Assembly (NCBI GenBank): GCA_963855995.1
Contig: OY979723.1
Span: 1,803,001 to 1,867,000, forward strand
Length of the DNA: 64,000 nucleotides
DNA from: Muricea muricata
Taxonomy: Eukaryota > Cnidaria > Anthozoa > Malacalcyonacea > Plexauridae
Reading direction: 5' to 3'
Position 1 is the first letter of the stretch. Each line of letters begins with the position of its first letter. Below are positions 933-46,839 of this stretch, piece after piece. Made by a program: the position numbers and the translations under genes. The notes beneath the pieces were generated by a model. The model was not told the origin of the DNA. It made no database searches and was given only the letters and a program-made list of their open reading frames with translations.

Positions 933-1657
933 GTGTGATAGTCGCATTTATCTGCATACAACTGATCAATCACAACGCATAAAACAACTGCAATGTATAA
1001 TAAAATAGTTTATTAATTAGGCCGGCCAAATTATTGTGTAAGCTGTTAATATGAAATTTTTTTATTAAAATGTCGAGAATCATTAGTAAATCGTGAACAA
1101 AACACAAAAGAAAATCATAGCCGTGAAGGAGTCTTTATTTTTCACACGCACACAACTTGCAGCTACCCTAATTTATGATTTTAAATCAAAATATCTCGAG
1201 AATTAAACAACACGTAAGGAATGTGTAAATTCTTAAAGCTCTTTCGAACAATAAAAATTAATATCTCGCACTAATCTCTCTCAAAAGCTCTCTCAAATTT
1301 ATTACCAATATCTCTTCAACTATTACTTTGCAGGTGAAATGTAACTTCTATCAAAACTAGCTTACTTCAAGTTGTTTGGGAATTAAGATTTTACGTGTCA
1401 ACGAGATCAAATATGAATCTAAGATGGCAGACAGCGCATTAAATTTCTATCTTTACGACCAACTCCCCAACGAAAGGCTTTAAATCGCTCGAAAGTCGAA
1501 TTTTGTTTTTTTATTGTTTAATGTAGTGAAAGATCCTGTGTGCTTTTTACAGCACTGCCAACACTAGCAACGTTAGTGCGAGATGTTAATTTTTATTAAA
1601 ACGAAAGCTGAACTGCTAAAGAAAATAGAAACGACAAGATAAAATCAAAAAACTTAC

Positions 1658-1747
1658 TTTCACTCTATCTTTGGATCTTCTTGGCTTCGGTTGTTCTCGT
1701 TTCATCATGCTGTTTATGGTTTCATCTGGTTGGCGCACTCTCTTCAT
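1658..1747 (-). other. Possible short coding exon (mirror of 10759-10848)
   Basis: On the minus strand an ATG at 1747 opens 30 codons of a basic, polar peptide (starting MKRVRQPDETINSMMKRE) that runs into GTAAGT, a strong splice-donor match, with the codon phase ending exactly at the donor. The 90 nt are identical in the right arm. The nearest acceptor-like AG is only about 40 nt downstream, which is short for an animal intron. I do not recognise the peptide. It could be a relic 5' exon or chance. Confidence 0.2.
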
Positions 1748-2749
1748 GGAACATCACGCCGGTCCAGTAGGTAACTAGCTCACTCGTGTCCAGTCAACCA
1801 ACATAAAATAAGGAGAAAATTAATGTTACAAAATATTTTAGAATATAGGACACTAAGCGTTAATTGAAATTGACTTTAACAAACCGTACATTGTGATAGT
1901 ATTTGCATCTTAACATCTGATGGAGACGGCTTGTGATTTACTTCTTATGTCGATGTGAATTCTTTCCCATCTTGTTGCGTCATTAGTTGATGGTTGTTGT
2001 ATTCACTTTTTACTTGGCATTCTTTGAAAAAAAAATTACGATGTTCAGAAAACTGTTTACAAGATAAGCAAAGAAAACTACGTTCACAAGCATTAGAGAG
2101 GACTAAGTAATTATAATAGGCGTGACAGGTCACAGAGGTTAGTCGACGAAGAAACTCATGGACAAATTCCCGGCATGATGATATTCCGATAGCAAGAAGT
2201 ACAGCAAGTGTAGAACGTGTACGTGTAAGCTTAAACTGTATGTATGCAACTCCAAGGAAAGCGCAACACAAAATGGCGGAATTTAAAGACATTTCTGGTG
2301 TCATTTCCAGTTCCCTAACTTTCGCGGACAAATATATTTATATATTTTTCTCAAATTTTTTTGAAGTAAATCTAGATGGATTTTGTGAATAAACAAATTG
2401 AAAAAAGTATTGCCCACGTTAGGAAACTAGAACGGGCGCCCAAGAATGCCCACAATTTCTCCAATCTGGATTATATTTATTGATTGCGCAAATGACTGAT
2501 AAAAAATAAGAGAGTAATAAAATACCAAATGGTTTCCTCTTCAAGATAGTGTCATACATGCGCGCGGCATTTCGGGATATTTGGGAAAACTCATGTTGAA
2601 GTTGAACCTAAGGCAACATGCCAAGTACATGGATGACGCTATCCTGCTCAGGAAACTATTTAGTAATTGTCTTACAAAATGATTACAGTGAAACACAAGT
2701 CAACGCCACGGCATTTAAATTTCTCGTGTAGGATTGTTTGATCCTGCAC

Positions 2750-2965
2750 AGTAATAGCCAAGTGGCGCAATCGTCAGAGCAAACGCCTATCACATGTGAG
2801 GTCGTGGGTTCAATCCTTACTTCAGACTCGTGACACCCATGTGAGGAGTTAGTCAGTCGTGGGTTTATCCCGGGTACTCCGGTTTGCGAATGTTGACTGG
2901 ATGGTTAAAATTGTAAAATATCAGTAATCACCGGAACACGGGTACTTAACTAAACTGCTGACGAT
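2750..2965 (+). mobile_element. tRNA-derived SINE
   Basis: Pol III internal promoter boxes are visible. The A box is TAGCCAAGTGG at 2755-2765, an exact fit to the TRGYNNARNGG pattern. The B box is GGTTCAATCC at 2807-2816, about 42 nt downstream. A T-arm-like stem (GTGGG/CTTAC with wobbles) encloses TTCAATC. The body continues through CCCGGGTACTCCGGTTT. The 3' end is set only approximately. The mirror copy in the other palindrome arm shows that the insertion predates the palindrome. Body fragments of the same family occur near 15985 and 58085. Confidence 0.75.
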
Positions 2966-3082
2966 GAGGCGGAACTCATAATGAATTAATGAAAATGTGT
3001 TTCACTGTAGTTATCATATAATGTAATTGCCAAGCTGAATGAATAATTCTCCAGTAACTACGTCATATGAATAATTTACAAT

Positions 3083-3370
3083 TATGAGAGTAGTGGGGGG
3101 GGGGGGCAGCATAAAGATTGAAGTAGTGTCAAGGAAGGGGTACTACCCTGACGGGTACTAGGCGAAGAAGTAGAGTAAACAGGAGGAAGAAAATTAAATT
3201 GGAGTAAATAAGGGGGATTGGGGTAAAGAAGGGGAGAAGCAGGATAAAGAAACCAGTGGAAGGGGGTGCTATCCTGGAAGGAGTACCCGGGAAAGAAGAG
3301 GGTGAACAGGAGGAAAAGTAGATTGGAGTACAGAAAGGGGAAATTAAACGGATCAGGAAATTCAGACTTG
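3083..3370 (+). repeat. Purine-rich low-complexity tract with a G run
   Basis: The tract begins with AGTAGTGGGGGG and contains two diverged direct copies of an approximately 120-nt segment (AGGAAGGGGTACTACC near 3132 and GAAGGAGTACCCGGG near 3277). The minus strand is open for 98 codons, but the peptide is Phe/Pro/Ser/Leu-rich low complexity and the same in the mirrored tract, so I do not call a gene. The G run differs in length between the arms. Confidence 0.6.
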
Positions 3371-4682
3371 CAATTCAAATGAAAGGCAGCTCATTGGTCA
3401 TGTAAACACTCGTTAAATCATGGTTCTCGCTTGCCTTTAGCTTGGAATCATCTTTGAATTTGAACTGAAAGTCTGAATTTGCATGTTTCTTGTATAGAGT
3501 GCAGTGTATCAGAACAGAAGAGGTTTTGAAGAAAAAGAAAGAAAGAATAAAAGTAAGTTAAAATTTGTAAAGAATAATGAAGAAACTATTGGTACAGCAC
3601 TTGATACATGATGATAATCATCATTATAAACTCTCTATTAATCCGGGGGGGGGGTATAATAGAGAATTTGCAATGATAGTAAGTATATTGTAATATTTGG
3701 GTTTTTACCACTAAATCCTCTTGAAAGTTCTTTTTGGCTGTGGCTTCTCTCATCACAGTTGTCTGTGCTTGTCTTGCAAAATCTCTGGAATATCTATAAC
3801 GTGAAGGTCAATATTTAAGATTAGAAAAATAGAAACCGTAAAATAGAAAGAAATTTAAATCGTGGCGAATACTTTTTACGGTCTTGCTGGCATGACAAAA
3901 AGAGAGTATAGATTTATAAGATCATGTTGATTTATCCTTTATCTGAACTATATTTAACTTAGATTTTAAAATAGATTTCACCCTGGTAAGCAGACCGAAT
4001 GGGTTTTCAAACAAGATAACATTTAATGACTAAAACGTGCACAGAATAGTTAGAGAATGCTTACATGTCGAATAAAAATCCAATACTTTTAATGTCCAAC
4101 TACACAATAGCGATTTTCGTTGCATTTCTAGACTGGAGAAGAAGACGACGCCATTTTGATTTTGATTTCTCCCGACAACGGCAGATTTGTCTTCGCAATT
4201 TTTTTCCATTTCTTCGTCGTTTTAGCTCCAATTTGCTCGTTGTGTTTCTTTCGTACCTTCCTCGCCATTTCCGTACAACCAATGGACATTTATACTCAAG
4301 ATTAAGACTGTATTGAGACTTTCAAAATGTTCGTCAGGAGACATAAAAATCGAAGCTTCTTCTTCGGGTTGCAGAAGCAAATGACGTCAGACGACCTTTG
4401 TCCGCCAGCAAATACCCGTATGTATAACATTCAATGATCTTTTTAGGAAGCTGAAAATCGGTTTTTATTGCGCGAACGAAGTGTTTTTGCCATTATTTCT
4501 TACTCAGGTCTTTCTTCTGCTGCTTTACTTCATGTTTACTTAGGTAACTTGCCAAAAGAAACGCCTGTAAGGGACAATTTTGCAATTTTTTTTATTTGGA
4601 TGCTGATGAACAAGGGAAGACTCGTTAAAGCTTTCATTGGCAAATATCTTTCCCTCCGTGGCCGAGAGGTAAAGACAACTGT

Positions 4683-5076
4683 CTTGACTTCGATTTTGGG
4701 TGGATCGAGGACCGGTCCAGTTCAACTGAGTTTGGTAAGAATTTAATTCTGATCGATGCTCGATCCACCCAAAACTGAAGTCAAAGCTGGGCGTGGAGTG
4801 CAGGAAAACACTAGGCAGTACCGCGAGGCCGAGGAGGCAAACGTTATTTTCCCAGCGTTGTTAACTAATATTTAAGCAAATTTCATTAACTTGACTGTTG
4901 GGGACAGACCTGTAGGGTTGGTGCATTGAAGACTTCTCGTCGTTATTTCCCTTCGTTCAAGAAGACAAGTTGTCTTCATCGAGAAATAACGACGAAAAGA
5001 CTTCAAGACACCACTAAACCACTACACTTTAAAGCTACAGTGTAGTGGTTTAGCTAGCTAAACCACTACACTGTGC
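4683..5076. repeat. Cluster of three nested hairpins (left arm)
   Basis: There are three dyads in a row. First, TTCGATTTTGGGTGGATCGA near 4688 pairs with TCGATCCACCCAAAACTGAA near 4766. Second, GAAGACTTCTCGTCGTTATT near 4927 pairs with AATAACGACGAAAAGACTTC near 4985. Third, CACTAAACCACTACAC near 5010 and an inner dyad around TTTAGCTAGCTAAA run to 5076. All are mirrored at about 7430-7820. They look like stacked foldback elements; I saw no coding signal. Confidence 0.75.
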
Positions 5077-5360
5077 CAATAATATATGGCTGACTTCTTC
5101 CTAACGCTTACGGTACGACCATGGATGCGCAAAGATGCGCAAACACATTAAAGCCTTGAAAGCAAGTGTTTTCTTTTAGGAAAGAATCAAGGACGACAAC
5201 GCTTACTAAATCAAAGCCGTCTAGTCATGTTTTAAGTACTTCAGCTGTTTAACGATCTTTTACCAGATCTTTGCAAGAGGAAAAGTAAAATTTTGCATCA
5301 TTATTATTAACTTTCCGTCAGTCGTTTCTTTCTTGATCGAGCATTATATGCCATTGTGTT

Positions 5361-5419
5361 CAGTGTCCTTGATATAGGAGCCATATACTTATGGCCTTGG
5401 GTTTAATTCCCAAACACTG
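5361..5419 (+). ncRNA. 59-nt tRNA-like cloverleaf, left-arm copy
   Basis: Four nested stems can be drawn. The outer stem is CAGTGT/ACACTG. A D-arm-like stem is TCCT/AGGA. An anticodon-arm-like stem is GCCAT/ATGGC with loop ATACTT. A T-arm-like stem is TTGGG/CCCAA with the seven-base loop TTTAATT. Flanking TGCCAT (5349-5354) and ATGGCA (5421-5426) can extend the outer stem. At 59 nt it is shorter than a standard tRNA of about 73 nt, lacks CCA and has a reduced acceptor stem. It is best read as a tRNA-derived relic or part of a SINE-like repeat. Expression is unknown. Confidence 0.45.
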
Positions 5420-5950
5420 AATGGCAGTGTTTTGCTCTTCCAATGAGATAACAAGATGGCACTGTAGAACGCGTGGTTTTATATAAGCTACGAGCGTCAA
5501 GATATCCTTGATAGGTAACTATTGATCCTACAATGGCACTTATGTTCACTGCCAATAGGAACGTTTTCAACTCACAGCTTGTACATAATGGCTTTTATAG
5601 GTTGTGTCACAAGGAAACTGCAGTTCGGTCGTAAAATCAACTTGTTTTCAAGGTTGCCGGGTTTTAAACATTACTGACACTGTTAATGTTGTAGCTCGGA
5701 ATTGTAAAACAACGGCGGCAATGCAGTTTTCTTGTGCCATAACCATATAAGCTACGACCGCCAAGCTTTATCCTTGATAGGAAAGAATTGATCCCACCAA
5801 CGACATTTGTATTCTCTACCGATAGGAACGTTTGAGACTTACAGCTTGTACATAACGCATTTTATCGGTGAGTCGTAAAACCAACCTGTTACTGCTCAGC
5901 AAACTACCATTTCCCTCGATCAACGATGGTCGATGAAGCTTGGCGCTCGA

Positions 5951-6524
5951 GTTGTTCAGCTAAGTTAAACGATCTTTTATGGCGAGGTCTTTTCAAGAAG
6001 GCATGAAGCATAGATGCGCAAACACTGTACAGCCTGTAAAGAATATGTCTTCTTTCGGGAAAGAGTCAAAGACGATAACGCTTATTAAATCAAAACTGTG
6101 TAGGCATGTTTTAAGTTGCTCAGCTATGTTTAACGATCTTTTATGACCAGGCCTTTGCAAGAAGGAAAGTCGAAGTTTGCATATACTATTGACTTTCCGT
6201 CGGTCGTTTCTTTCTTGATCGAGCTTTATATGTCATTGTGTTCAGTGTCCTTGATATAGGAGTCATGTATTTATGGCCTTGGGTTTGATTCCCAAACACT
6301 GCATGGCAGTCTTCAGCTCTTTCAAGTAATAAGATAACTTTGGAACAAGATGGCAATGCGTTATTTACTATATGCCTGGTCATGCTGTAAATAATCATGT
6401 AGTATATTCTACAAACCTTAACTCAGAACGTTGGCTGTCAGTTTCTATTCGTGGTTGCTTTGAAACATTGCAGATACTGCTAACCTGGCTATAACCTGTA
6501 AAATGCTTGGTTTTACACAACCTA
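5951..6524. repeat. Palindrome spacer, a diverged direct copy of the inner arm
   Basis: The 575 bp between the arms is not self-complementary. From about 5995 to 6345 it is a diverged direct repeat of about 5110-5460 in the left arm, with shared order: the ATGCGCAAACAC stretch, the GTTTAACGATCTTTTA stretch, a tRNA-like cloverleaf, then the CAAACACTG and GGCAGT stretches. A second, shorter direct repeat lies within the arm (about 5481-5610 and 5745-5870). The centre of the palindrome is therefore built from several generations of duplication. No gene is seen. Confidence 0.8.
6243..6301 (+). ncRNA. 59-nt tRNA-like cloverleaf, spacer copy
   Basis: This is a diverged direct copy of 5361-5419. 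Substitutions keep the stems: the anticodon-like stem is GTCAT/ATGGC, using a G-U wobble. The loops change (GTATTT and TTTGATT). GGTTTGATTCC fits a B box with one mismatch. The same four stems form, so the fold has been kept while the flanks drifted, although the sample is small. Confidence 0.45.
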
Positions 6525-7080
6525 CGAGCGCCAAGCTTCATCGACTATCGTTGATCGAGGGAACTGGTAGTTTGCTGAGCAGTAACAGGTTGGTTTTACG
6601 ACTCACCGATAAAATGCGTTATGTACAAGCTGTAAGTCTCAAACGTTCCTATCGGTAGAGAATACAAATGTCGTTGGTGGGATCAATTGTTTCCTATCAA
6701 GGATAAAGCTTGGCGGTCGTAGCTTATATAAATGATAAAACCACCCATTTTACAGGTTATGGCACAAGAAAACTGCATTGCCGCCGTTGTTTTACAATTC
6801 CGAGCTACAACATTAACAGTGTCAGTAATGTTTAAAACCCGGCAACCTTGAAAACAAGTTGATTTTACGACCGAACTGCAGTTTCCTTGTGGCACAACCT
6901 ATAAAATCCATTATGTACAAGCTGTGAGTTGGAAACGTTCCTATTGGCAGTGAACATAAGTGTCCATTGTAGGATCAATAGTTACCTATCAAGGATATCT
7001 TGACGCTCGTAGCTTATATAAAACCACGCGTTCTACAGTGCCATCTTGTTATCTCATTGGAAGAGCAAAACACTGCCATT

Positions 7081-7139
7081 CAGTGTTTGGGAATTAAACC
7101 CAAGGCCATAAGTATATGGCTCCTATATCAAGGACACTG
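7081..7139 (-). ncRNA. 59-nt tRNA-like cloverleaf, right-arm copy
   Basis: This is the mirror of 5361-5419, apparently identical over all 59 nt. It was copied with the palindrome arm. Confidence 0.45.
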
Positions 7140-7429
7140 AACACAATGGCATATAATGCTCGATCAAGAAAGAAACGACTGACGGAAAGTTAATAATAAT
7201 GATGCAAAATTTTACTTTTCCTCTTGCAAAGATCTGGTAAAAGATCGTTAAACATAGCTGAAGTACTTAAAACATGACTAGACGGCTTTGATTTAGTAAG
7301 CGTTGTCGTCCTTGATTCTTTCCTAAAAGAAAACACTTGCTTTCAAGGCTTTAATGTGTTTGCGCATCTTTGCGCATCCATGGTCGTACCGTAAGCGTTA
7401 GGAAGAAGTCAGCCATATATTATTGGCAC

Positions 7430-7820
7430 AGTGTAGTGGTTTAGCTAGCTAAACCACTACACTGTAGCTTTAAAGTGTAGTGGTTTAGTGGTGTCTTGAA
7501 GTCTTTTCGTCGTTATTTCTCGATGAAGACAACTTGTCTTCTTGAACGAAGGGAAATAACGACGAGAAGTCTTCAATGCACCAACCCTACAGGTCTGTCC
7601 CCAACAGTCAAGTTAATGAAATTTGCTTAAATATTAGTTAACAACACTAGGAAAATAACGTTTGCCTCCTTGGCCTCGCGGTACTGCCTAGTGTTTTCCT
7701 GCACTCCACGCCCAGCTTTGAATTCAGTTTTGGGTGGATCGAGCACCGATCAGAATTAAATTCTTACCAAACTCAGTTGAACTGGACCGGTCCTCGATCC
7801 ACCCAAAATCGAAGTCAAGA
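7430..7820. repeat. Cluster of three nested hairpins (right arm)
   Basis: This is the mirror of the hairpin cluster at 4683-5076, with only a few base differences. The GCTAGC-centred dyad lies near 7440-7462. Confidence 0.75.
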
Positions 7821-9129
7821 CAGTTGTCTTTACCTCTCGGCCACGGAGGGAAAGATATTTGCCAATGAAAGCTCTAACGAGTCTTCTCTTCTTCATCAGC
7901 ATCGAAATAAAAAAAAATGCAAAATTGTCCCTTACAGGCGTTTCTTTTGGCAAGTTACCTAACTAAACTGGAAGTAAAGTAGTAGAACAAAGACCTGAGT
8001 AAGAAATAATGGCAAAAACATTTCGTTCGCGCAATAAAAACTGATTTTCAGCTTCCTAAAAAGATCATTGAATGTTATACATACGGGTATTTGCTGGCGG
8101 ACAAAGGTCGTCTGACGTCATTTGCTTCTGCAACCCGAAGAAGAAGCTTCGATTTTTATGTCTCCTGACGAACATTTTGAAAGTCTCAATACAGTCTTAA
8201 TCTTGAGTATAAATGTCCATTGATTGTACGGAAATGGCGAGGAAGGTACGAAAGAAACACAACGAGCAAATTGGAGCTAAAACGACGAAGAAATGGAAAA
8301 AAATTGCGAAGACAAATCTGCCGTTGTCGGGAGAAATCAAAATCAAAATGGCGTCGTCTTCTTCTCCAGTCTAGAAATGCAACGAAAATCGCTATTGTGT
8401 AGTTGGACATTAAAAGTATTGGATTTTTATTCGACATGTAAGCATTCTCTAACTATTCTGTGCACGTTTTAGTCATTAAATGTTATCTTGTTTGAAAACC
8501 CATTCGGTCTGCTTACCAGGGTGAAATCTATTTTAAAATCTAAGTTAAATATAGTTCAGATAAAGGATAAATCAACATGATCTTATAAATCTATACTCTC
8601 TTTTTGTCATGCCAGCAAGACCGTAAAAAGTATTCGCCACGATTTAAATTTCTTTCTATTTTACGGTTTCTATTTTTCTAATCTTAAATATTGACCTTCA
8701 CGTTATAGATATTCCAGAGATTTTGCAAGACAAGCACAGACAACTGTGATGAGAGAAGCCACAGCCAAAAAGAACTTTCAAGAGGATTTAGTGGTAAAAA
8801 CCCAAATATTACAATATACTTACTATCATTGCAAATTCTCTATTATACCCCCCCCCCCCCGGATTAATAGAGAGTTTATAATGATGATTATCATCATGTA
8901 TCAAGTGCTGTACCAATAGTTTCTTCATTATTCTTTACAAATTTTAACTTACTTTTATTCTTTCTTTCTTTTTCTTCAAAACCTCTTCTGTTCTGATACA
9001 CTGCACTCTATACAAGAAACATGCAAATTCAGACTTTCAGTTCAAATTCAAAGATGATTCCAAGCTAAAGGCAAGCGAGAACCATGATTTAACGAGTGTT
9101 TACATGACCAATGAGCTGCCTTTCATTTG

Positions 9130-9420
9130 AATTGCAAGTCTGAATTTCCTGATCCGTTTAATTTCCCCTTTCTTTTCTCCAATCTACTTTTCCTCCTGTT
9201 CACCCTCTTCTTTCCCGGGTACTCCTTCCAGGATAGCACCCCCTTCCACTGGTTTCTTTATCCTGCTTCTCCCCTTCTTTACCCCAATCCCCCTTATTTA
9301 CTCCAATTTAATTTTCTTCCTCCTGTTTACTCTACTTCTTCGCCTAGTACCCGTCAGGGTAGTACCCCTTCCTTGACACTACTTCAATCTTTATGCTGCC
9401 CCCCCCCCCCCCACTACTCT
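9130..9420 (-). repeat. Pyrimidine-rich mirror of the 3083-3370 tract
   Basis: This is the reverse complement of 3083-3370, with a C run of about a dozen bases near 9400-9413. The open frame (105 codons on the plus strand) is compositional, not coding. Confidence 0.6.
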
Positions 9421-9554
9421 CATAATTGTAAGTTATTCATATGACGTAGTTACTGGAGAATTATTCATTCAGCTTGGCAATTACATTATATGATAACTAC
9501 AGTGAAACACATTTTCATTAATTCATTATGAGTTCCGCCTCATCGTCAGCAGTT

Positions 9555-9757
9555 TAGTTAAGTACCCGTGTTCCGGTGATTACTGATATTTTACAATTTT
9601 AACCATCCAGTCAACATTCGCAAACCGGAGTACCCGGAATAAACCCACGACTGACTAACTCCTCACATGGGTGTCACGAGTCTGAAGTAAGGATTGAACC
9701 CACGACCTCACATGTGATAGGCGTTTGCTCTGACGATTGCGCCACTTGGCTATTACT
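9555..9757 (-). mobile_element. tRNA-derived SINE, mirror copy
   Basis: This is the reverse complement of the SINE at 2750-2965, with the A box at 9742-9752 and the B box at 9691-9700 on the minus strand. Both boxes are intact. It was copied with the arm and is not an independent insertion. Confidence 0.75.
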
Positions 9758-10758
9758 GTGCAGGATCAAACAATCCTACACGAGAAATTTAAATGCCGTG
9801 GCGTTGACTTGTGTTTCACTGTCATCATTTTGTAAGACAATTACTAAATAGTTTCCTGAGCAGGATAGCGTCATCCATGTACTTGGCATGTTGCCTTAGG
9901 TTCAACTTCAACACGAGTTTTCCCAAATATCCCGAAATGCCGCGCGCATGTATGACACTATCTTGAAGAGGAAACCATTTGGTATTTTATTACTCTCTTA
10001 TTTTTTATCAGTCATTTGCGCAATCAATAAATATAATCCAGATTGGAGAAATTGTGGGCATTCTTGGGCGCCCGTTCTAGTTTCCTAACGTGGGCAATAC
10101 TTTTTTTAATTTGTTTATTCACAAAATCCATCTAGATTTACTTCAAAAAAATTTGAGAAAAATATATAAATATATTTGTCCGCGAAAGTTAGGGAACTGG
10201 AAATGACACCAGAAATGTCTTTAAATTCCGCCATTTTGTGTTGCGCTTTTCTTGGAGTTGCATACATACAGTTTAAGCTCACACGTACACGTTCTACACT
10301 TGCTGTATTTCTTGCTATCGGGGTATCATCATGCCGGGAATTTGTCCATGAGTTTCTTCGTCGACTAACCTCTGTGACCTGTCACGCCTATTATAATTAC
10401 TTAGTCCTCTCTAATGCTTGTGAACGTAGTTTTCTTTGCTTATCTTGTAAACAGTTTTCTGAACATCGTAATTTTTTTTTCAAAGAATGCCAAGTAAAAA
10501 GTGAATACAACAACCATCAACTAATGATGCAACAAGATGGGAAAGAATTCATATCGACATAAGAAGTAAATCACAAGCCGTCTCCATCAGATGTTAAGAT
10601 GCAAATACTATCACAATGTACGGTTTGTTAAAGTCAATTCAATTAAAGCTTAGTGTCCTATATTCTAAAATATTTTGTAACATTAATTTTCTCCTTATTT
10701 TATGTTGGTTGACTGGACACGAGTGAGCTAGTTACCAACTGGACCGCCTTGATGCTCC

Positions 10759-10848
10759 ATGAAGAGAGTGCGCCAACCAGATGAAACCATAAACAGCATG
10801 ATGAAACGAGAACAACCGAAGCCAAGAAGATCCAAAGATAGAGTGAAA
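10759..10848 (+). other. Possible short coding exon with splice donor
   Basis: An ATG at 10759 opens 30 codons ending in GTG AAA directly before GTAAGT (10849). The peptide is basic and not recognised. A polypyrimidine-like stretch and TAG at 10881-10889 would give a 41-nt intron, then ten more codons to a TAA that overlaps AATAAA. The intron is suspiciously short. It is the mirror of 1658-1747. It could be a decayed first exon carried by the palindrome. Confidence 0.2.
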
Positions 10849-11507
10849 GTAAGTTTTTTTATTTTATCTTGTCGTTTCCATTTTTTTAGCAGTTCAGCTT
10901 TTGTTTCAATAAAAATTAACATCTCGCACTAACGTTGCTAGTGTCGGTAGTACTGTAAAAAGCACACAGGATCTTTCACTACCTGAAACAATAAAAAAAA
11001 ACAAAATTCGACTTTCGAGCGAATTAAAGCCTTTCGTTGGGGAGTTGGTCGTAAAGATAGAAATTTAATGCGCTGTCTGCCATCTTAGATTCATATTTGA
11101 TCTCGTTGACACGTAAAATCTTGATTCCCAAACAGCTTGAAGTAAGCTAGTTTTGATATAAGTTACATTTCACGTGCACAGTAATTCTCAAAGAGATATC
11201 GGCAATAAATTTGAGAGAGCTTTTGAGAGAGATTAGTGCGAGATATTAATTTTTATTGTTCGAAAGAGCTTTAAGAATTTACACATTCCTTACGTGTTGT
11301 TTAATTCTCGAGATATTTTAATCTAAATTCATAAATTAGGGTAGCTGCAAGTTGTGTGCGTGTGAGAAATAAAGACTCCTTCACGGCTATGATTTTCTTT
11401 TGTGTTTTGCTCACGATTTATTAATGATTCTCGAGATTTTAATAAAAAAATTTCATATTAACAGCTTACACAATAATTTGGCCGGCCTAATTAATACTAT
11501 TTTATAA

Positions 11508-11875
11508 TATACTGAGTGTCAAAGTTCATTTATTCCTGTTTCTTATTGGTTAAGAACGTATCACGTGATAGTGGAGAAATTCTATTGTCTCCCTGGCAAC
11601 GTAGCTAAGCGGTGGACATTACTTTTATTCACCGGTAGACAACAAATCCACAAAGCCTCACGTAGCCATGTCAGGTAAAAGGTAATCCTTTTTACACATG
11701 TTTGATTGATTTGTGGTACTTTTCTTCTCTTTTGGCACTCAGTATATAATAAAATACTTATTGACTGAGACCTCGGGAAAGCAGTATGTTTTGTGGACCC
11801 TCGACATCGACAGTCTCTGGTCCACAAAACATACTGTTTCCCTCGGTCTCAGTCAATAAGTGTTAATTACTATAC
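11508..11875. mobile_element. 358-bp insertion with TATAC target duplication
   Basis: TATAC at 11508-11512 and again at 11871-11875 bracket 358 bp that are absent from the left arm, where the site reads uninterrupted near 985-1015. The insert length plus the 5-bp duplication explains exactly the 363-bp step in the pairing sum. The insert ends in a long hairpin (about 11757-11799 with 11818-11860; stem contains CTTATTGACTGAGACCTCGG). No terminal inverted repeat is evident at the left end. The family is unknown; it is non-autonomous with no coding capacity. Confidence 0.8.
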
Positions 11876-12544: not shown

Positions 12545-12691
12545 ATGTTATAGTTTACTTATTAAGCTTTGTGGAAACACCACGTAAATTTATTATTGCA
12601 ATAATAAATTTACGTGGTGTTTCCACAAAGCTTAATAAGTATATTGTATTCACCATGCAAACGTACAAGAAACTTATCATGTTATAGTTTA
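12545..12691. mobile_element. 134-bp insertion carrying a perfect 84-bp palindrome
   Basis: ATGTTATAGTTTA occurs at 12545-12557 and again at 12679-12691; the left arm has only one copy (near 545-558). Between the copies, 12557-12640 is a perfect palindrome with no spacer, centred on TTGCAA, followed by 38 bp of unique sequence. The direct repeats look like a 13-bp target duplication or a replication-slippage footprint. Confidence 0.75.
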
Positions 12692-13237
12692 TAAATTATT
12701 CGTAACTATCATCTCATGACTTAATTCTTTCTACTATTGCAAAGGGTGATGGGATGTGAAAAAAACGCACAAGAAGAGAAAAGAATGAACGATCCTGGAC
12801 GGCAAGACCCACAAAACAACAATCCACAAGAATAAGAAGACACGACATTGTAATAGAAAGTAGTGGTAATGTGCAAGTTAGTAGAAAACAAGATACTTAT
12901 TATTGAGGGATCAAAGAGGATTTAATAGATATTTCTCGTTAATGAAAAAGAAAAGACAGCAAATTAAGTGAAAAAAATTGGATTGAAATAACATTGATAT
13001 CAAATACATTCAACAAAATAATTAAATAGAATATCTAGGAGTTTGGCAGTCAATTTTCGAGTCAAAAAACAGGTAAAAATATGGTAAATGTCGACAATAT
13101 TTTTTAAAGAAACAATACCTTAACGCCTGGAAATTTCGTCTCTAACATTTGGATTTGGATATTTCTAAAAACAAAACAAAATAACATGTAGGATTGAACG
13201 TTATTTTGTTTTCGTTAAGTTTCGTAATAATGCCACT

Positions 13238-13579
13238 AAATTATAGTTGATGCATTTTGTCACTATTCTTGGTTTGCACATGCCGTCATTTCGTGTGATT
13301 GGGCGCCATCTTGGTTGACTCTGCAGATTACTTCAGCTGTTTACAGCGAAACACTAGTGTCAATTTACTATTTCATCGTTAGTTTTAGCGTATTATGAAT
13401 GATACTTTAAAGATGTATGGCTCGATAGGATCAGATATAATGAATAGATACTTTGTGGTTGCCATGTGTTTCAAACGTCAACAAAGATGGCGTCGATTGT
13501 AAACGATCAATTCCGTCGTTCTACCTTTAAAGAATGTGTTCTCTGGTTAAAAAGCGAGAAAATGTGACTTGTATTCCAA
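13238..13579. other. Unique AT-rich DNA beyond the palindrome, with one tiny frame
   Basis: No match to the left side is visible because the window starts there. A 26-codon frame at 13487-13567 starts at AAGATGG (a good eukaryotic initiation context) and begins MASIVNDQFRRSTFKECVLW. It stops 12 bp before a foldback element. It could be the start of a truncated exon, but no donor is clear, so I do not call a gene. Confidence 0.3.
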
Positions 13580-13815
13580 TTCACCGTAGCAAAACAGATG
13601 GTGGCATGTCGATTTTACCAGAATTTAATGCGGGTATCAATCAAGAATACCAGTGAAATGATATTTAAGATAAGCTAATGGACGGAATTTTAACACAAGT
13701 GACAAAATAACCTATCTGTCTGTTCCTCAAACGAGGTTAATTTACCTTAAGTTTTTAAACGATTTCAGACCGCAAGGCATTCTGGTAAAATCAACACCCG
13801 CCATCTTTTTGCTAC
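13580..13815. mobile_element. Foldback element, copy 1
   Basis: The ends are inverted repeats: GTAGCAAAACAGATGG then CGATTTTACCAGAAT at the left, ATTCTGGTAAAATC then CGCCATCTTTTTGCTAC at the right. The interior also aligns with copy 2 at 19271-19511 (shared TTTTAACACAAGTG and AATAACCTAT). It is a dispersed non-autonomous element. The interior has no long open frame. Confidence 0.8.
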
Positions 13816-14317
13816 ATTAAATTCCCAAGGGAATATATCATTTCTTTGTTTCTTAGCTAATTTGGTTCATACATCCATGCAAATCAGTAGGATCATTATA
13901 TTTTTTTGTGCATTTTAAATTCCCATGGGAATACGGCATGCTTTGTTTCAATGGTGATGCGTCTGTTTATGGTAATTACTGCATAATGCGAATCCTCTTT
14001 GATTATTAATATGATAAGTATCTTGGTGCTTTCAGATTTGTTTTGGTAAGCAGGAACAATGAAGTCATTGTTTGTGTACACTAAAGCAAATTACGAAGGT
14101 GGTTTGAGAGCAGCTGCGAGGTACCATGCAAATGAAGGCGTTTCGGTTAAATAAGTGTGAGAATTACGGCATTAAAAATTGCATGTCATCTACACTTAAG
14201 GATATAAGTTGCCAAAAAAAAAACCAACTTTAGTGAATCTGTTGAGTTTCAATTGCTTTTTATTTTTGCCTAATTCTCATGCTTATTTGACCCAGCCTTG
14301 GACTTTGGTAAGTATCA
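13816..14317. other. AT-rich intergenic DNA
   Basis: It contains two near-identical motifs, AAATTCCCAAGGGAATA (13828) and AAATTCCCATGGGAATAC (about 13917), both partial dyads; a similar AATTCCCATGGGAATT lies near 15537. No gene or RNA is seen. Confidence 0.5.
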
Positions 14318-14559
14318 GGGGCCGGTTGTATCAAAGGCGTTTAGCTTAAACGGTGGATAAGTCAAAAATATGAAACACGTTTCCATGTTGTATAAACAAA
14401 CCAGCTGAAGTTATTTGACCTGAGAAGAACAATTATATATAAAACTAAATATTTATTCTATTTCAACTCATAATTTCGGTTCCGTACTAGGTGTAAAACT
14501 GATTTTTAAATTTCACTTATCCACCGTTTAAGCTAAACGCCTTTGATACAACCGGCCCC
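14318..14559. mobile_element. 242-bp MITE, GGGGCCGGTT family
   Basis: The terminal inverted repeats exceed 40 bp and begin GGGGCCGGTTGTATCAAAGG, with the exact reverse complement ending at 14559. The central part is AT-rich and non-coding. A strongly diverged relative with the same GGGCCGGTT ends lies at 39151-39396. Confidence 0.85.
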
Positions 14560-15393
14560 AGGTTTATATTTACTCCGGAACAGTTAACACAACGAAAAGC
14601 CCATGCCCATTCAGCTAAGGTTTTACGTTTGAAAATTCAATCAAAAACTCAGTCTAAGTGGGTTTAAGTAGCTAGAGATAACGTAATTTATCTTTTTATT
14701 TTGCTTTTTTGTTTATAACGTAATTTATTAGCTAAATGTATGGACTGCGAGGGTGTGCGCCGTGTGTAAGTTGCATGGGGTTAGGTTTATTAAAGGAATT
14801 AAAATTTTTGAAAGTATGCTTAAAAACCAAAATCTGTCGTCACTTCTAACAAAACAGTTAAGAGTAGGTTTCAACATCAACTAAATTGATCTATACTATT
14901 AACTAAGAAAAATGCGAATTAAGTTTTATATTTTGCAAGCAAATTTTAAATAGAATTCTCACCTGTTTTTATGTACGAGCTTTTTCTGTTTACGTTTGAT
15001 CTAAAATATCCAAATAAATTGCATTTAAAATGCATACTTTACCGAAATTTTAACTCTTTTAATTTTCGAAATTGGGTGGCAGTCGGGGTGGTGGTGGTGC
15101 ATGCGGGTTTATCAGCTGTGAGTGACTGTGCGATGGTGAGGAAAGTGAAGGTAACGAATGGAATGCAGGAGCTTAGAACTGAGGAAGACAGCTTAGAACT
15201 GAGGCAGGTAGGCAGTTGGTAGGATCAGCGGGGGGCACTTGACATTTTGGCTTTGGGAATCAAATTTGCATGCTAAGTACTTAAGTCACTAACGTTTGTT
15301 GTTTTAATTTGTTAGGTACGCGCGGCTGCTCTCTAGGGAAGATCAACTTAGCAATTGTATTAGCACTTGCAAAGTTGGTCTTCTCTTTGCCGG
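14560..15393. other. AT-rich intergenic DNA
   Basis: No supported gene. An 83-codon open frame at 14971-15222 starts in AT-rich DNA and ends over a tandem duplication of GCTTAGAACTGAGG (about 15171 and 15192). It shows no domain and no codon signature. Confidence 0.5.
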
Positions 15394-15511
15394 CTACCCC
15401 GGCCAGTTCTCCGAGTGCTACTTCCACCGTGAATAAGTAGAAGTACTTGTACTACATGTATAAGTACTTCTACTTAGGTGGAAGTGGCACTTGGGGAGCT
15501 GGCCGGGGTAG
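15394..15511. repeat. Foldback hairpin of about 118 bp
   Basis: CTACCCCGGCCAGTTCTCCG at the left pairs imperfectly with the GGAGCTGGCCGGGGTAG end at the right. The inner stem AAGTAGAAGTACTTG/TAAGTACTTCTACTT closes a loop containing TACTACATGTA. It is a non-coding foldback element or hairpin. Confidence 0.8.
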
Positions 15512-15984
15512 GGGGATTTTTTTTATTCAATTTCTCAATTCCCATGGGAATTGAATTTTTAATTAAAAAGGGGTCACAAGTAAATTTTGTAAACAATTTA
15601 TTGAAAAAATTTGTAAAGATTACATACAATTTGAATAACAATAAAAAGAGATTAACTACCACACATTGTACTTATTAAAATAACAACAGAAGAAAACAGA
15701 ACATGGCAGAGAGAACAATAACACAAGTGAATGAACAAAGTCCTAAAAAACTTGGGTCTTTTCAACGTAAGTAAATGTTTATACTTCAAAATATATTATA
15801 ACAATGAAACAACTTGAAGTGATAAATTTTGAGAGTTTTGCAAAGGTTTACCCAGCATATAACGAGTTGTTTCACAATTACAAAGAAAAACATGTGGCTC
15901 AAAACATGCAACTGATAGAGATGACGAGAAGGCTTAACAAGTCTAAGTAGAAAGGTTTTCAAAAGTTAGTCACATTTTTATAAC

Positions 15985-16075
15985 CATATGTCAACTGTCA
16001 ACTCTCCCAGTGGGAAGAACCGGAGTACCCGGAGAAAACCCACGAGTTTTGGCGGAGCGTTGACCAACGCTTTTT
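15985..16075 (-). mobile_element. SINE body fragment
   Basis: The minus strand carries CGTGGGTTTTCTCCGGGTAC then TCCGGTTCTTCCC, the same motif found in the body of the SINE at 2750 (CCCGGGTACTCCGGTTT). No A or B box is visible here, so this is a 5'-truncated or decayed copy. Confidence 0.55.
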
Positions 16076-19000
16076 CAAATACAGCCAGCCTCACAGAAGA
16101 AAGGTATTTTTGTCAAAAGAAAAATATTATTTTTAATCAATTGTGCTTTTATAAGTCAGAAAAAATACATGCACGAATTACCAACGAATTTTGATGGCTT
16201 TGAGACATGTAACGTGGGCACATAATTCTTCCTAAAAATACTTTTTTGTACTCGAAACAACCCTTCAAAACGTCGAAAAACAACGAAGAAACGATTTTTT
16301 TATAAATTCCAAATTGACCAAGCTGTAATGTTCGGAGCCACATTTTTCTTATTGCGTTTCTAACCTGACAATGTGAAATGCACTAAACATTGCTACCTTT
16401 ATTTTTTTTTTAACAAAAAATTCAAAAATACATAGAATAAAAACCAAGCATTTTTAGAATATTGTGTGTAGCACGACATTTTTCAGAAACCAATCTCTTA
16501 CACTTTTCTTTGCATAACAGTGCATGCGATCTATTTTTCGCAAAAAAATACAAAGAAAGTCTCAGACATCTCATTTTTCTGGTGGGCACAAGAACAGAAG
16601 CTTTTTGTTCAAATTGTGATAATTTATTTGAGATAACTTTGGGCAAAATTCTATTTTTCATTGAAAACAGCCGAAAAATCAATGCTTTGGCTTTGCCCAG
16701 CAACTAATGAAGTCACTCGATAGTGAAGTTGCTTTATATACAATTGATAGTTTCAGTGTTAAAGAGACCAAAATAAAAGTAGAAATACATAACTTAGATT
16801 GATCTTGGATTGAAAAGTAAAAAATTTATTCGAAGAATCAATTTAAATTTAGTCTTTTTGGAAGGTACCATTGTCAGGTTAGGAACATATCTCTTTGAAG
16901 TATAAATTCATCTTTACTTACTTGTTGAAAAGACTATATTCAAGAGCCATGTAAATCTGTTTTCTTATATTATTATTACCACGCAAGTATTACAAAGTGG
17001 AATATTTGAAATGTAAACTTGAACTGAAGCAAAGGAAATGCACATACAAATTCAGAAATATTTCAATTGCCAAAATACAAATTCACCACAACCAAACAAT
17101 ATAAAAAGTTCCAGTAGGCAATATGTTGTAATTTTAATTAAGAAACTTATAAAGTAATAAATCATACAGGAAACACAAAAGAAATCATTTTCTCATCTTA
17201 CAGAATCGGTATTTTCAAAATCACTTTGCTATAGATCTGATGTATAAAATTGACGAGTTTCACAAGCCATTTACAACATTCGCATCTGTGTATGTCAGAT
17301 ATCTCGCCTTCAGCTTGGGTTTCTATATCCGATACAACCCGGTCACTTGTATTGTAAATAGTACAAATCAAAATTGTTATCAAATCAAAGTCTCAAACTA
17401 ATTTAAATTATTCTACTCCATATAATGCCAGACAGTTTTACTTTTTCTCAGGAAAGACCTTATGTTCAACAAGGTAAATTTGGCATGTTAATTAAGAAGT
17501 CTGTAAAATTTGAAATTGCATAGTATCAACTAAAAGCTTCATGTGACTTAAAACTTTTTCAAGTCGATGTAATACGAAGAACTCTGGTAAAGTATTTACT
17601 GTATCCAGGCATCAATAGAAAACTTTTAAAATTAAAAATTGTAGTTACTTATACTTATTATTGGCCAACATCTGTACTGCTTGTTTATCTAGAAAATCTG
17701 GCATACTGTCAATTTTTTTAGTCCAAGGAAACTTTTTTACTCTTAAATTCTTACATCCGCCACATCTTTTCTTTGCTAATAAAAAGAGCCCACAGAATTT
17801 ATTTGGCAAGTTGTGGTTTTCTTTTTCATTTAAGATATGTAATTAATTGATAAAGTTAAAGAACAACTGCATCAGTTCATCTCAATTCCAAACAAGTTCC
17901 ACTTTGTAAACAAAAGACAATATGCTATATAGCTTATTTTGTCCTTAATAAGTAGTTCATCTTAAAGTTTGAAAGTCAACATTCTAGTACAAAATCACAA
18001 AGTCTGTATCTAAGATAAATTACCAGTAGTATAAAATATTACAAAGTATTTTTTTAACTTTAAAGGGTCCAATATAACATTGAGAACTATTGTGATTTTC
18101 AAATGAACTTTCCAAACTTTCAAATGAACACTCAAAGCCAGCTTAAACAAAAGATGATTGAGATAGTAAACCAGGAAATAACATAGGTGTTGTAATTTTT
18201 TATCAAAAATATGATATAGTGCATATAACAGAAACATTTCAATTAAAAAGTAGAAATATATTTCCTGTGGTTAGTTTTAATTGCTATATATATTGAAATT
18301 TTAGTATAATAATGGATGTTTTTGTTTCTGGCAAAGTCACCTCAATCTCCTTATGTTTAACCAACATTACAAAGTCAAATAATGACAAACACGAATGATT
18401 AAACACAAATTTATATTTTAATGGGTAAAAATAAATATGTCCAAATTAGTATAATCATGCATATAGGTCTAGTAGGGTACCAATTTTTAGAAACAGAATT
18501 GTGTTGTTTAGAGGCATAACATATAAAATTGCTAGATTTGATATTTCAGTTTTTTAAGAAAGCCTTTTGTATGTGTTTTCATGAACTCTTGGGCCATAAT
18601 TCAATTGATTTGAACCAAATAAGATTCTAACTTTCTTTTAAAACACAGTTCATCATTATTTGACTTTTTCTAAGATTAAAATGCTTCTGGAGCACATGAG
18701 ATTCCACGGTATGTGTACCCACAAAATAATCGTCAAATTAGGTGAGAATGAAACCGTCATGTCCAAAATTATACCGTCCCAAATTGTCCCATATTCAATA
18801 TTGTACATGCAATATTCCAATACCTTTAACAATTTCATTTTTCATAATCTTCCAGTTGTTGAGAGGAGGTTAAGCATTTTGTCGATCTACAAACAAATTT
18901 CAAAGAATTCTATTGAAGATAGATAACTGAAATGGTAAACAAACTGCAAAAGATAACAATGCAAGTGGTTGTGTAAAAACTAAAGACCACGTAAAGTCGG

Positions 19001-19127
19001 CCATTCTGTACAGTGTTTGGATTTGACAGTTTGAATTTTAATTGCCTCAAGAAAAGTCTAAAAGGCATTAAAAACACAACATTCCTTGTTCTTTTTTAAC
19101 CTCCCGACCTTGCACGACTCCCACATC
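16076..19127. other. 3 kb of AT-rich DNA without recognisable genes
   Basis: All open frames here are under 100 codons, overlap on both strands and lack recognisable domains. No tRNA, SINE or long repeat stood out. Frames at 16422-16703 (minus) and 16462-16707 (plus) are the same sequence read on both strands. Confidence 0.5.
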
Positions 19128-19670
19128 CTGCTCCGTCTCCTCCTATCCACCTCCCACCCTCAAGGCCCTGTCACACGGTGCAATTTTTCTTGCACTTGTA
19201 ACTGCTCCGTCTCCTTCTCTATCCACCTCTTACCCTTAAGGCCCTGTCACACGGTGCACTTTTCCTTGCATTCACCGTAGCAAAAAAGATGGCGACATGT
19301 CGATTTTACCAGAATGCATTGCAGGTATCAAGAAAGAATACGTGGGAAAAGATGACAAGAAACAAAGCTACTGGATTGAAATTTTAACACAAGTGTGAAA
19401 ATAACCTATTGTCTTCTGTCTGTTCTTCAAAAGACGTTAATTTGCCTTTTTAAACAATTTCAGACTGCCATGCAATCTGGTAAAATCGACATTTGCCATC
19501 TTTTTTGCTACAGGGAAAATCTACTCTTAAGTAAATTTGTGACAAATGTTTGGTACGTTAAAAAACCCCAGCAAACTGTGATGGAAACTTGCATTTGCCA
19601 ATTTTACATCTCCCAATAGTAGAATTGCATTTCAAGTTGCAAGAAAAATTGCATTGTGACAGGACCTTTA
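19128..19670. mobile_element. Nested MITEs: CCTGTCACA element with foldback copy 2 inside
   Basis: The outer element has ends GGCCCTGTCACACGGTGCAA (from 19164) and TTGCATTGTGACAGG (to about 19665), with TTTTTCTTGCA/TGCAAGAAAAA continuing the inverted repeat. Its left end is tandemly duplicated: 19128-19194 and 19203-19270 are direct copies of about 70 bp. Inside, 19271-19511 is a second copy of the foldback element at 13580-13815, starting TTCACCGTAGCAAAAAAGAT and ending with its inverted counterpart. Confidence 0.75.
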
Positions 19671-20000
19671 TTCTCCAGTGTTCCCGCCAACCTGCTCCCA
19701 CCATTAGATGGAAAGTCCTTTTTTCACTACATTTTAGTAATTAGGCTACCCCCCTCCTCTCACAAGTCTGTAATCGCCTGACGAAATCAATTGGTCGACA
19801 GTCCAAGGCATGTTTTGTAATCGAAATTCACAAAATTAAAATTAAATTGCCTTTTTTCAATAAATTTGAACCAGAACCAACTCTATACATAGAACTGTCT
19901 CAGCATACTTTCTTCGACAATCTCAACAATTCAAGACCTCATTCAGTTTCTATAGCGGATTTCATGGTATTATTATCGAACCAACTTCAACTGAAAACGG

Positions 20001-23000: not shown

Positions 23001-23183
23001 CTGACTAAATGCTGCTCCAATTGTACTTTGCTTACTTTAGAGTTTAAGGTTTAAAATTCAAGGTTTGCAAACAAAAACGTTTTTTTGAATTAGCTATACA
23101 AAGATTTTAAGCAACGAGTTCCCCACCATGAAGCTAATAATTTTCTCCATAACTAATTTACAGAATTTTCTATCACTGAAAAT
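20001..23183 (+). repeat. Long inverted repeat, left copy (pairs with 60832-64000)
   Basis: Pairing coordinates sum to 84001 at the outer part, 84014 after a 13-bp indel near 20930 (extra TAATAATAATA-type sequence here) and 84016 after a homopolymer difference near 21430. All conceptual peptides outside the indel are the same in both copies, so divergence is very low. The inner boundary is sharp at about 23183, after TCACTGAAAAT. The true outer end cannot be seen because the partner runs off the window. No coding gene is recognised inside. It contains a foldback element (20322-20843) and A-runs near 21428-21455. Confidence 0.95.
20322..20843. mobile_element. Foldback element with arms of about 200 bp
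   Basis: The ends are TGCTCCGAGCATAGACAATC (20322) and its reverse complement ending at 20843. The arms stay alignable for about 200 bp (shared CGCGACATCCGTGATACG, GGAACCCTGTAACTTCACTT and CATATTTTAAACAAGAAC). The right arm carries a small extra segment near 20755-20790. The loop is about 130 bp. It is a long-TIR foldback element without coding capacity. Confidence 0.8.
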
Positions 23184-45639: not shown

Positions 45640-46230
45640 ATTCATAATGAGCTGTATACAAATCTGTTACAGGAAAGTACATAAATCCCTGAATTATGAT
45701 ACATACAGAGCTATGGTACATAGCACATAAATAACAGGCCTTGCATTTACTACATGTGATTGTGAATGCACCACAGAGCAGAAAATACTGTTAAAATCTC
45801 TGTACCGCCGGTAATAAGTAGAATAGGCACCATATAAATCCCTGGGCAGGTATATATTTAGTATAATGCATGTGTACACAGAGGGTACATAGCACATAAA
45901 TAACAGGCCTTGCATTTAATATATGTGAATGCACGACAGAGCTTATTATATAAACCTCAGCTGTGTGTCACTGGATAGTATCAGGGCACCATACAAAGCC
46001 CTGGACTGCTAGACAGGTATATTTATGAAGTATAATGCACACATAAAGTACATAGCATACAAATAACAGGTCTAGCTGTATTTGACATATGTGAATGCAG
46101 AGCTTATTATATAACCCTTAGCTGTATTACTGCATTGGTAGTATGAGGACCATATCAAGCCCTGGAGTTGGACAGGTTATATTTGTGACCTATCATTCAC
46201 ATAGATACATAGCACGGAGAAATAATTATA
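45640..46230. repeat. Tandem repeat of about 167 bp, related to the 112-bp array
   Basis: GTACATAGCACATAAATAAC then AGGCCTTGCATTTA recurs at about 45717, 45886 and 46051 (spacing 165-169 bp). Units also carry AGAGCTTATTATATAAACCT and CAGGGCACCATACAAAGCCC, which resemble the two dyads of the 112-bp array, so the two families are probably related. Confidence 0.75.
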
Positions 46231-46839
46231 TCAGTTTGAAAGCACAATATTCAATAACATTTGTTCATGCGTAAAACTGTTTTAGCAAATATTTTTTATA
46301 AACATGGAATTCAAAATCTCTGCATGATAGGATTCATATCTTGCAAAATTAATTACTATTATCTAACGATTATAGGAAGTTAGGAACATATACATTCAAA
46401 CCACTTACATGTCTTGATGTAATTTAAATGCTCCTCGCTACACTTATGTCGCTAACGTAAGAAATATTGTGTTTAGGGTAAGGAAATAATAGTAAACGTG
46501 CCAGCGAACGACGAACAAGGACTCCACAAAGTAGACCATCGAAGTATATCAGTGCCACGGAAATGAGCGAATTATGTGTGGTATCACGTGTCAGAAAATA
46601 GCGCTAAAATAAATTATACAATGTTAAGATAAATTATAACATTTACCACGGTATTTATGTTAATTACTTAATTTTAAACCTCATTGTTCATGTTCTTTAC
46701 ACTATATACATACAGTATCTACATATCAACGAGCTAGCATATGCGTAATATATATGTCGTACAAGATGAAAAAAAAATATAAATTGTGATATTGGAAGCA
46801 AGAAAGATTAAAACCAAATATGAACAATCAAACTGAGAA
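46231..46839. other. AT-rich spacer between arrays
   Basis: No periodicity, gene or RNA was identified. Confidence 0.4.

What the first reader, a model, noticed from the sequence alone, without database searches (positions are those of the whole stretch)
5361..7139. Repeated 59-nt tRNA-like cloverleaf at the palindrome centre
Three copies (5361-5419, 6243-6301, 7081-7139 minus) fold by eye into acceptor-, D-, anticodon- and T-like arms in 59 nt. The diverged spacer copy keeps every stem, using a G-U pair in the anticodon-like stem, while its loops change. The T-arm resembles a Pol III B box. It may be an undescribed miniature tRNA-like element or the head of a tRNA-derived repeat.
Basis: partly seen in the sequence, partly recalled or inferred. 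Interest (0 to 1): 0.7.

Follow-up and report, generated by a model that had tools for sequence, protein, structure and literature searches.

The report
Conserved mini tRNA-like fold in palindromes
A 59-letter sequence that folds like a shrunken transfer RNA is repeated more than a thousand times in this genome, near the centres of palindromic repeats where these were read, and its fold has been preserved while its sequence changed, so it probably does something for those repeats.

Summary
In detail: three 59-nt copies lie at the stated places; the arm copies are identical and the spacer copy differs at 4 sites with every stem kept. Patterns find 1,194-1,575 copies in this 453-Mb genome; 66 of 100 listed form inward-facing pairs. 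The copies read at length lie in palindromic repeats without long ORFs. Diverged copies show that the fold is constrained: compensatory double changes in two stems, 21 of 26 distinct rows fully paired (null 14.9), all six gapped copies varying the anticodon-like loop length, and near-invariant acceptor, D-loop TGA and T loop. The geometry (almost no linkers, small D arm, 17-nt T arm) resembles mascRNA/menRNA rather than a standard tRNA. No tRNA or mascRNA model accepts it, and 12 of 12 copies read with flanks lie in longer homologous blocks, so it is not a SINE head. Best reading: a tRNA-mimic module in the repeat's RNA, perhaps recruiting tRNA-processing enzymes. A folded single-strand DNA signal is the main rival; transcription is untested. 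A second, weaker mini-cloverleaf lies at 58240-58296.

The parts
5361..5419 (+). mini-cloverleaf, left-arm copy
6243..6301 (+). mini-cloverleaf, diverged spacer copy (55 of 59)
7081..7139 (-). mini-cloverleaf, right-arm copy (identical to left arm)
5339..5437 (+). longer structure: cloverleaf on two further helices (GAGCA/TGCTC and TGCCATT/AATGGCA in this copy)
   Evidence: mirrored at 7063-7161 (-) and spacer equivalent 6221-6319 (+), both by offset
996..5949 (+). left inner palindrome arm (97.8% to 6525-11509)
6525..11509 (-). right inner palindrome arm
12679..20877 (-). right outer arm; its partner runs from window 555 leftwards to about 7.6 kb before the window start (99.4%)
21481..21508 (+). 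end of the repeat shared by several other copies, with hairpin CTCCGCCT...AGGCGGAG

Best explanation
[not shown]
For: 1,575 places (<=3 mismatches to a 35-place pattern, reversed-pattern control 0) and 1,194 exact places of a 23-mer of the 3' part (control 0). Of the 100 copies listed, 36 neighbouring pairs lie within 3 kb: 33 converge, 3 are same-strand (-/-), 0 diverge. Outside the finding pattern, mean pairwise identity among 14 copies is 1.00 (positions 1-6) and 0.94 (42-59) against 0.43-0.80 in flanks. Against a palindrome about 22% diverged over window 3982-5463, gaps counted (L082), the 59-mer is 94.9% identical; 1 of 2692 windows is better for one arm of L082 and 0 for the other. Covariation: pair 9/16 is U-A, U-G, C-G or A-U; 24/31 is U-A or C-G; 21/34 is U-G, U-A or C-G. 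Monte Carlo on 26 distinct rows: 21 fully paired, null 14.9, none of 20,000 as high; double changes kept 3 against 0.15, P 1e-4. 43 of 50 rows of alignment A4 are fully paired over 19 pairs. In all 6 gapped copies both halves of the third stem still pair and the loop changes length. T loop TTT[A/G]ATT in 34 of 34; D-loop TGA in 34 of 34; third loop most variable, 18% of cells. mascRNA/menRNA arm lengths and lack of linkers: PMC11693755.
Against: No RNA evidence of any kind. Rfam tRNA 14.4 bits (cut-off 29), aligning only acceptor and T arm; tRNA-Sec 13.4 bits (cut-off 47) for the spacer copy; mascRNA-menRNA RF01684 gives no match in the genome (68 of 43,627 candidates scored). The control with partners slid by -1 has 4 both-side cells against 3 for the true structure, though only 38% of its cells pair. 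D stem (6.4%) and third stem (5.0%) change letters about as often as D-loop positions 13-15 (6.9%), and the 3' side of the T stem (7.1%) more often than the T loop (2.5%): the constraint shows in the kind of change, not in a slow rate. Elbow bases are invariant, so they carry no covariation. Strand preference is weak: 9 G-U against 2 A-C pair types in the 59-mer (P 0.03), 16 against 8 in the longer structure (P 0.08). Outer helices continue the acceptor stem, unlike a free tRNA 3' end. Some copies break the third stem (L086, L087, L103, L106/L108, both L123 copies), one the D stem (L119), some the acceptor (L069, L107/L109). Of 8 copies folded singly 5 give the full fold and L091, L106, L086 a variant. 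Set 1 alone showed no double change. Acceptor and T stem show only one-sided changes.
Confidence: 0.5

Rival explanations
1. The fold acts as single-stranded DNA: a branched hairpin next to the palindrome centre, recognised by a replication or transposition protein during copying of the repeat.
For: The repeat is packed with near-perfect hairpins. Other patches near the centre, among them hairpins, are about as conserved as the 59-mer (4890-4948, 4999-5079). Both strands of the arm copy fold. The strand test is weak.
Against: G-U rather than A-C pairs prevail in the 59-mer (9 against 2 types). Loop bases that matter in tRNA T loops are conserved while the third loop is free. The minus strand of the spacer copy folds poorly, z -1.5.
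Confidence: 0.25
2. Stems are kept by a mutation process, not by function: template switching in hairpins or gene conversion between copies restores complementarity.
For: Palindrome arms are alike within an element, 96.5-99.4% in the three compared, while the aligned block of another subfamily is about 78% alike.
Against: Does not explain near-invariant loops (TGA, TTTRATT) beside a free third loop, double changes in a 3-bp stem, or persisting G-U pairs.
Confidence: 0.12
3. It is a Pol III unit or tRNA-derived SINE head.
For: A box 10 of 11, B box 10 of 11, T arm 5 bp with 7-nt loop. Rfam tRNA aligns acceptor and T arm at 14.4 bits. TTTT within 25-27 nt downstream in 24 of 46 copies. With very relaxed settings ARAGORN calls the spacer 59-mer an mt-tRNA-Met and the arm copy with flanks a tRNA-Tyr, but it then also calls up to 53 others in 2.2 kb.
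Against: No independent dispersal in 12 of 12 copies; boxes only 30 nt apart (start to start); C56 replaced by T; no TTTT in 22 of 46 copies; ARAGORN at normal settings finds none in 60 loci. By contrast 2756-2826 has A and B boxes 44-52 nt apart.
Confidence: 0.07
4. Chance fold in one young repeat, seen three times by duplication.
For: In 50 copies from the window and 16 loci of the young element only three further substitutions occur; a loose descriptor is met by chance in 238 of 956 shuffled windows.
Against: Covariation and placement of indels among diverged copies; strict descriptor absent from 1251 shuffles.
Confidence: 0.02

Closest known systems
mascRNA / menRNA (tRNA-like RNAs of MALAT1 and MEN-beta; Rfam RF01684)
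   Same: Similar size; four arms with almost no linkers; T arm 17 nt; small D arm; third arm with compact loop; candidate elbow bases in D and T loops (PMC11693755, part 1 of 2 of the text read; arm lengths here).
   Different: Six-pair acceptor; D-loop GA instead of GG and T-loop U56 instead of C56; no RF01684 match; acceptor continued by outer helices; no A-rich tract directly upstream (that feature of MALAT1 is recalled); many copies inside palindromic repeats.
Transfer RNA (Rfam RF00005)
   Same: Order of arms; T arm 5 bp with 7-nt loop, purine at 57 and A at 58.
   Different: No 8-9 linker, one-base variable region, six-base instead of seven-base third loop, 3-bp D arm, score 14.4 below the cut-off 29.
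tRNA-derived SINEs
   Same: Repetitive; A- and B-box-like stretches.
   Different: Not a unit of dispersal of its own in 12 of 12 copies.
Foldback / long-TIR DNA transposons (recalled)
   Same: The host repeat is a long inverted repeat without long ORFs.
   Different: Arms of about 14 kb around an asymmetric spacer; no transposase domain in the four ORFs tested and no target-site duplication established here.

Membership tests
tRNA (RF00005) | Score above the family's cut-off | tested here: not met
   14.4 bits against 29; no match in the window at the cut-off
tRNA (RF00005) | 7-nt anticodon loop on 5-bp stem | tested here: not met
   5 bp with a 6-nt loop, 5-11 nt in the six gapped copies
tRNA (RF00005) | T arm 5 bp with 7-nt loop TTCRANN | tested here: inconclusive
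   5 bp and 7 nt met; C56 is T in 34 of 34
mascRNA-menRNA (RF01684) | Match to the covariance model | tested here: not met
   0 matches in own genome, 68 of 43,627 candidates scored; not listed at E<=10 around two copies
mascRNA-menRNA (RF01684) | Cloverleaf without linker residues, short D arm, 17-nt T arm | tested here: met
   compared; two single-base linkers (A19, C36) remain
mascRNA-menRNA (RF01684) | Cut by RNase P and RNase Z, CCA added | not testable with these tools
   no RNA data
tRNA-derived SINE | Dispersed as a unit starting with the tRNA-like head | tested here: not met
   12 of 12 copies read with 435 nt lie inside longer homologous blocks
Pol III type 2 gene | A box, B box and T-run terminator | tested here: inconclusive
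   boxes 10 of 11 each; TTTT downstream in 24 of 46 copies

The most novel reading that the evidence does not exclude
A family of giant palindromic repeats without long ORFs carries its own mascRNA-like miniature tRNA mimic, cut out of or guiding the repeat's RNA by tRNA-processing enzymes, with an A-U elbow pair in place of G19-C56.
Probability: 0.3. Interest if true: 0.85.

Novelty: new variant of a known kind. Interest (0 to 1): 0.72.

Why it matters
Linker-less tRNA mimics are known to me mainly from vertebrate lncRNAs (recalled). A mimic with more than a thousand copies would give a rich natural alignment for the rules of such folds, and would suggest that a mobile repeat uses the tRNA-processing system. 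It also gives a handle on how very long palindromes without long ORFs spread and keep their two arms alike.

Tried and rejected
Chance fold: rejected. Ordinary tRNA or known RNA family: no match at a cut-off. SINE head: rejected. Assembly turnaround as source of the palindromes: inner arms differ by 2.2% in the window, 3.5% on C13 and 3.4% in L082, and another subfamily keeps the layout, so not a plain artefact; the C13 copy is exactly inverted over 3178 nt at its ends including flank, unexplained. Ribozyme: only Hammerhead_1 at 19 bits in the flank of L123, below its cut-off 34. RNA against DNA by strand asymmetry: inconclusive. Presence elsewhere: 0 exact matches of one 23-mer in IMG/VR and in bacterial and archaeal genomes; no collection of animal genomes is held. 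Literature searches (nine of ten) listed no paper that by title or abstract start deals with such a palindrome family or mini-tRNA repeat; beyond listings I saw only passages of PMC10236652 and part 1 of 2 of PMC11693755.

Full report
What is there. The three copies exist as described: 5361-5419 (+), 6243-6301 (+), 7081-7139 (-); arm copies identical, spacer copy 55 of 59. Both sequences fold alike: stems 1-6/54-59, 7-9/16-18, 20-25/30-35, 37-41/49-53. The four spacer changes fall in the third stem (two, both to G-U) and in loops (two). Random placement of four changes would keep every pair in about 8% of cases, so the three copies alone are weak evidence. In the alignment of the two blocks the 59-mer is no better conserved than the 50 nt just upstream.

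The host repeat. The window lies at G000:C8:1803001-1867000 of a 453-Mb genome. ORFs outside the repeat match BTB and filamin domains, and SPRY below its cut-off, so I take it for an animal (inference). The palindrome spans about 28.5 kb or more (window -7632 to 20877); several other copies share an end at 21508. Stop-to-stop ORFs of the palindrome inside the window reach 134 aa and the four tested match no Pfam family at its cut-off. The 16 loci of 10 kb taken around further copies match the window over nearly all their length at 98.3-99.6%. A second palindrome, C3:40379800-40385800 (L082), is 74% identical to window 3982-5278 in a local alignment and about 78% over 3982-5463, yet its own arms are 96.6% alike; it holds the 59-mer on either side of its centre, and its longest ORF is 154 aa. 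A third, shorter pair (L123) keeps the same order of hairpins on the one side that was read; its arms are only 83% alike over 323 nt. So this is an old family with a recurring layout, whose arms are alike in the younger members.

Copies of the 59-mer. A 35-place pattern (<=3 mismatches) finds 1,575 places, a 23-mer of the 3' part 1,194; both controls are 0. Among the 100 listed, neighbours within 3 kb are 33 converging, 3 same-strand and 0 diverging pairs, so 66 of 100 copies are in converging pairs. 12 of 12 copies read with 435 nt sit in longer homologous blocks.

Test of the fold. Two sets of copies were read. Set 1: 32 of the 100 places listed, picked outside the young palindrome, plus the two window sequences; found by positions 7-41, so 1-6 and 42-59 are free. 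Set 2: 40 of the first 47 places that are absent from the list (7 in triplet clusters passed over); found by positions 37-59, so 1-36 are free; by this choice each has some change in 7-36, but of no chosen kind. Set 1 alone shows only one-sided changes: five pairs change to another standard type, one of them also breaks once, the closing pair 25/30 varies, and there is no double change. Set 2: 34 ungapped rows, 26 distinct; 6 gapped rows kept apart. On 50 rows (16 of set 1's 34, the rest being duplicates or close to them, and the 34 of set 2; 42 distinct) 99.1% of cells pair over 19 pairs; none of 500 shuffles reaches the covariation score and 9 of 500 reach the number of pairs with double changes; slid structures pair 31.5-49.7% of cells, but the slide by -1 has 4 both-side cells against 3. 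RNAalifold recovers the fold with 18 pairs and a small covariation term of -0.43. Pair 9/16 appears as U-A, U-G, C-G and A-U; 24/31 as U-A and C-G; 21/34 as U-G, U-A and C-G. A Monte Carlo that moves each row's changes to random paired positions gives 14.9 fully paired rows against 21 of 26 seen (none of 20,000) and 0.15 double changes against 3 (P 1e-4). In set 2, 8 of 272 stem pairs are broken while 45 of 476 loop and linker letters are changed; 43 of the 50 rows are fully paired. The closing pair 25/30 is not conserved (23 of 42 unpaired), so the third arm is 5 bp with a 6-nt loop. Breaks are real: L069, L086, L087, L103, L106/L108, L119, L107/L109 and L123.

In the 6 gapped rows the halves of the third stem still pair and the loop has 5-11 nt; L118 has a further base in the linker (the aligner put some gaps inside the stem, equivalent placements lie in the loop). 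A rough count puts 5 of 6 distinct events in loop slots, P 0.001, with events and slots counted by hand.

Loops. Set 1: T loop TTTAATT 28, TTTGATT 6 of 34. Set 2: D loop starts TGA in 34 of 34; third loop differs from consensus in 18% of cells, acceptor 5' side in none. Stems are not slow as such: D stem 6.4%, third stem 5.0%, D-loop 13-15 6.9%, T-stem 3' side 7.1%, T loop 2.5%. The pattern fits a tRNA-like elbow: T54-A58 and R57 kept, with A12-U44 able to replace G19-C56 (tRNA numbering recalled). As these bases do not vary, the elbow is a proposal.

Beyond 59 nt. Two outer helices also pair (87.8% and 91.4% of cells; U16-A106 becomes A-U in 4 of 46 rows), with many more mismatches than the core (46 rows: 17 of set 1, 29 of the 34 ungapped set-2 rows, leaving out L098, L099, L100, L108, L112). 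The core is thus the head of a structure at 5339-5437. That differs from a free tRNA end, though leader-trailer pairing of precursors would look similar (recalled). TTTT follows within 25-27 nt in 24 of 46 rows.

Comparison with the known. Rfam tRNA aligns acceptor and T arm only, 14.4 bits, below its cut-off. mascRNA-menRNA (RF01684) has no match in the genome. Yet arm lengths resemble mascRNA: acceptor 7, D arm 11, third arm 15, T arm 17 nt, no linkers against 6, 12, 16, 17 here with two single-base linkers. I file it as working like a mini tRNA mimic, not as a member.

Mechanism. Shown: repeat context, converging pairs, constrained fold. Inferred: RNA as the active form (G-U over A-C, 9 to 2, P 0.03, but 16 to 8, P 0.08, in the larger structure), tRNA-like shape, recruitment of tRNA-processing or tRNA-binding proteins. 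Other patches near the centre, among them hairpins, are about as conserved, so the 59-mer is one module of a larger structured region.

Second mini-cloverleaf. A covariance model built from the 50 rows (R1), run on the window and seven other held loci, finds, besides known copies and one weak hit at 32745 (E 0.56), 58241-58295 (+) at 20.7 bits, E 0.0007-0.0012, and a third copy in the L082 spacer (39 bits) that no longer folds as a cloverleaf (z -0.1). The 58-kb structure (z -2.9; -4.0 with flanks) follows an A-rich tract. It has nine further places in the genome: two at 99%, six at 77-80% over query 1-213 to 1-225 of 241, one partial. It may be an independent case or the end of a SINE; it was not resolved.

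What the check changed: the T-run was first called not conserved; counting showed 24 of 46, so the Pol III row is now inconclusive and that rival went from 0.05 to 0.07.

Noticed in passing
window 58240-58296 (+): A second linker-less mini-cloverleaf (7-bp acceptor, T arm with 7-nt loop) directly after an A-rich tract 58217-58240 and below a U-rich stretch 58161-58176, a layout like the MALAT1 3' end (recalled); nine further places in the genome. A SINE-core-like CTCCGGTTTCC at 58114-58124 (recalled motif) makes a SINE tail an alternative for the A tract.
   Followed up: partly
window 2756-2826 (+), mirrored near 9681-9751 (-): tRNA-derived head with A box and B box (GGTTCAATCCT) 44-52 nt apart and Rfam tRNA 13.4 bits (below the cut-off 29), followed by a SINE-core-like CCCGGGTACTCCGGTTT (recalled motif): probably a SINE carried in both palindrome arms.
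   Followed up: partly
window 4657-4670: CGTGGCCGAGAGGT resembles a tRNA-Ser/Leu A box (recalled) and is conserved in the L082 palindrome.
   Followed up: no
G000:C13:2948240-2979717 (L045, L046): Left and right ends of this palindrome are exact reverse complements over 3178 nt, including 884 nt of flank beyond the shared repeat end: recent conversion or copying past the element end, or an assembly effect.
   Followed up: partly
window 21508-23183 and 60832-62508: 1.67-kb flanks of two facing palindromes are 99.9% alike in inverted orientation, around 37.6 kb of other sequence.
   Followed up: no
window 4919-5074: Hairpins (TTGAAGACTTC..., CTAAACCACTACACT...) near the palindrome centre are about as conserved between subfamilies as the 59-mer.
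   Followed up: partly
window 46000-56000: Long tract with strong purine skew and diverged tandem units (145-425 nt).
   Followed up: no
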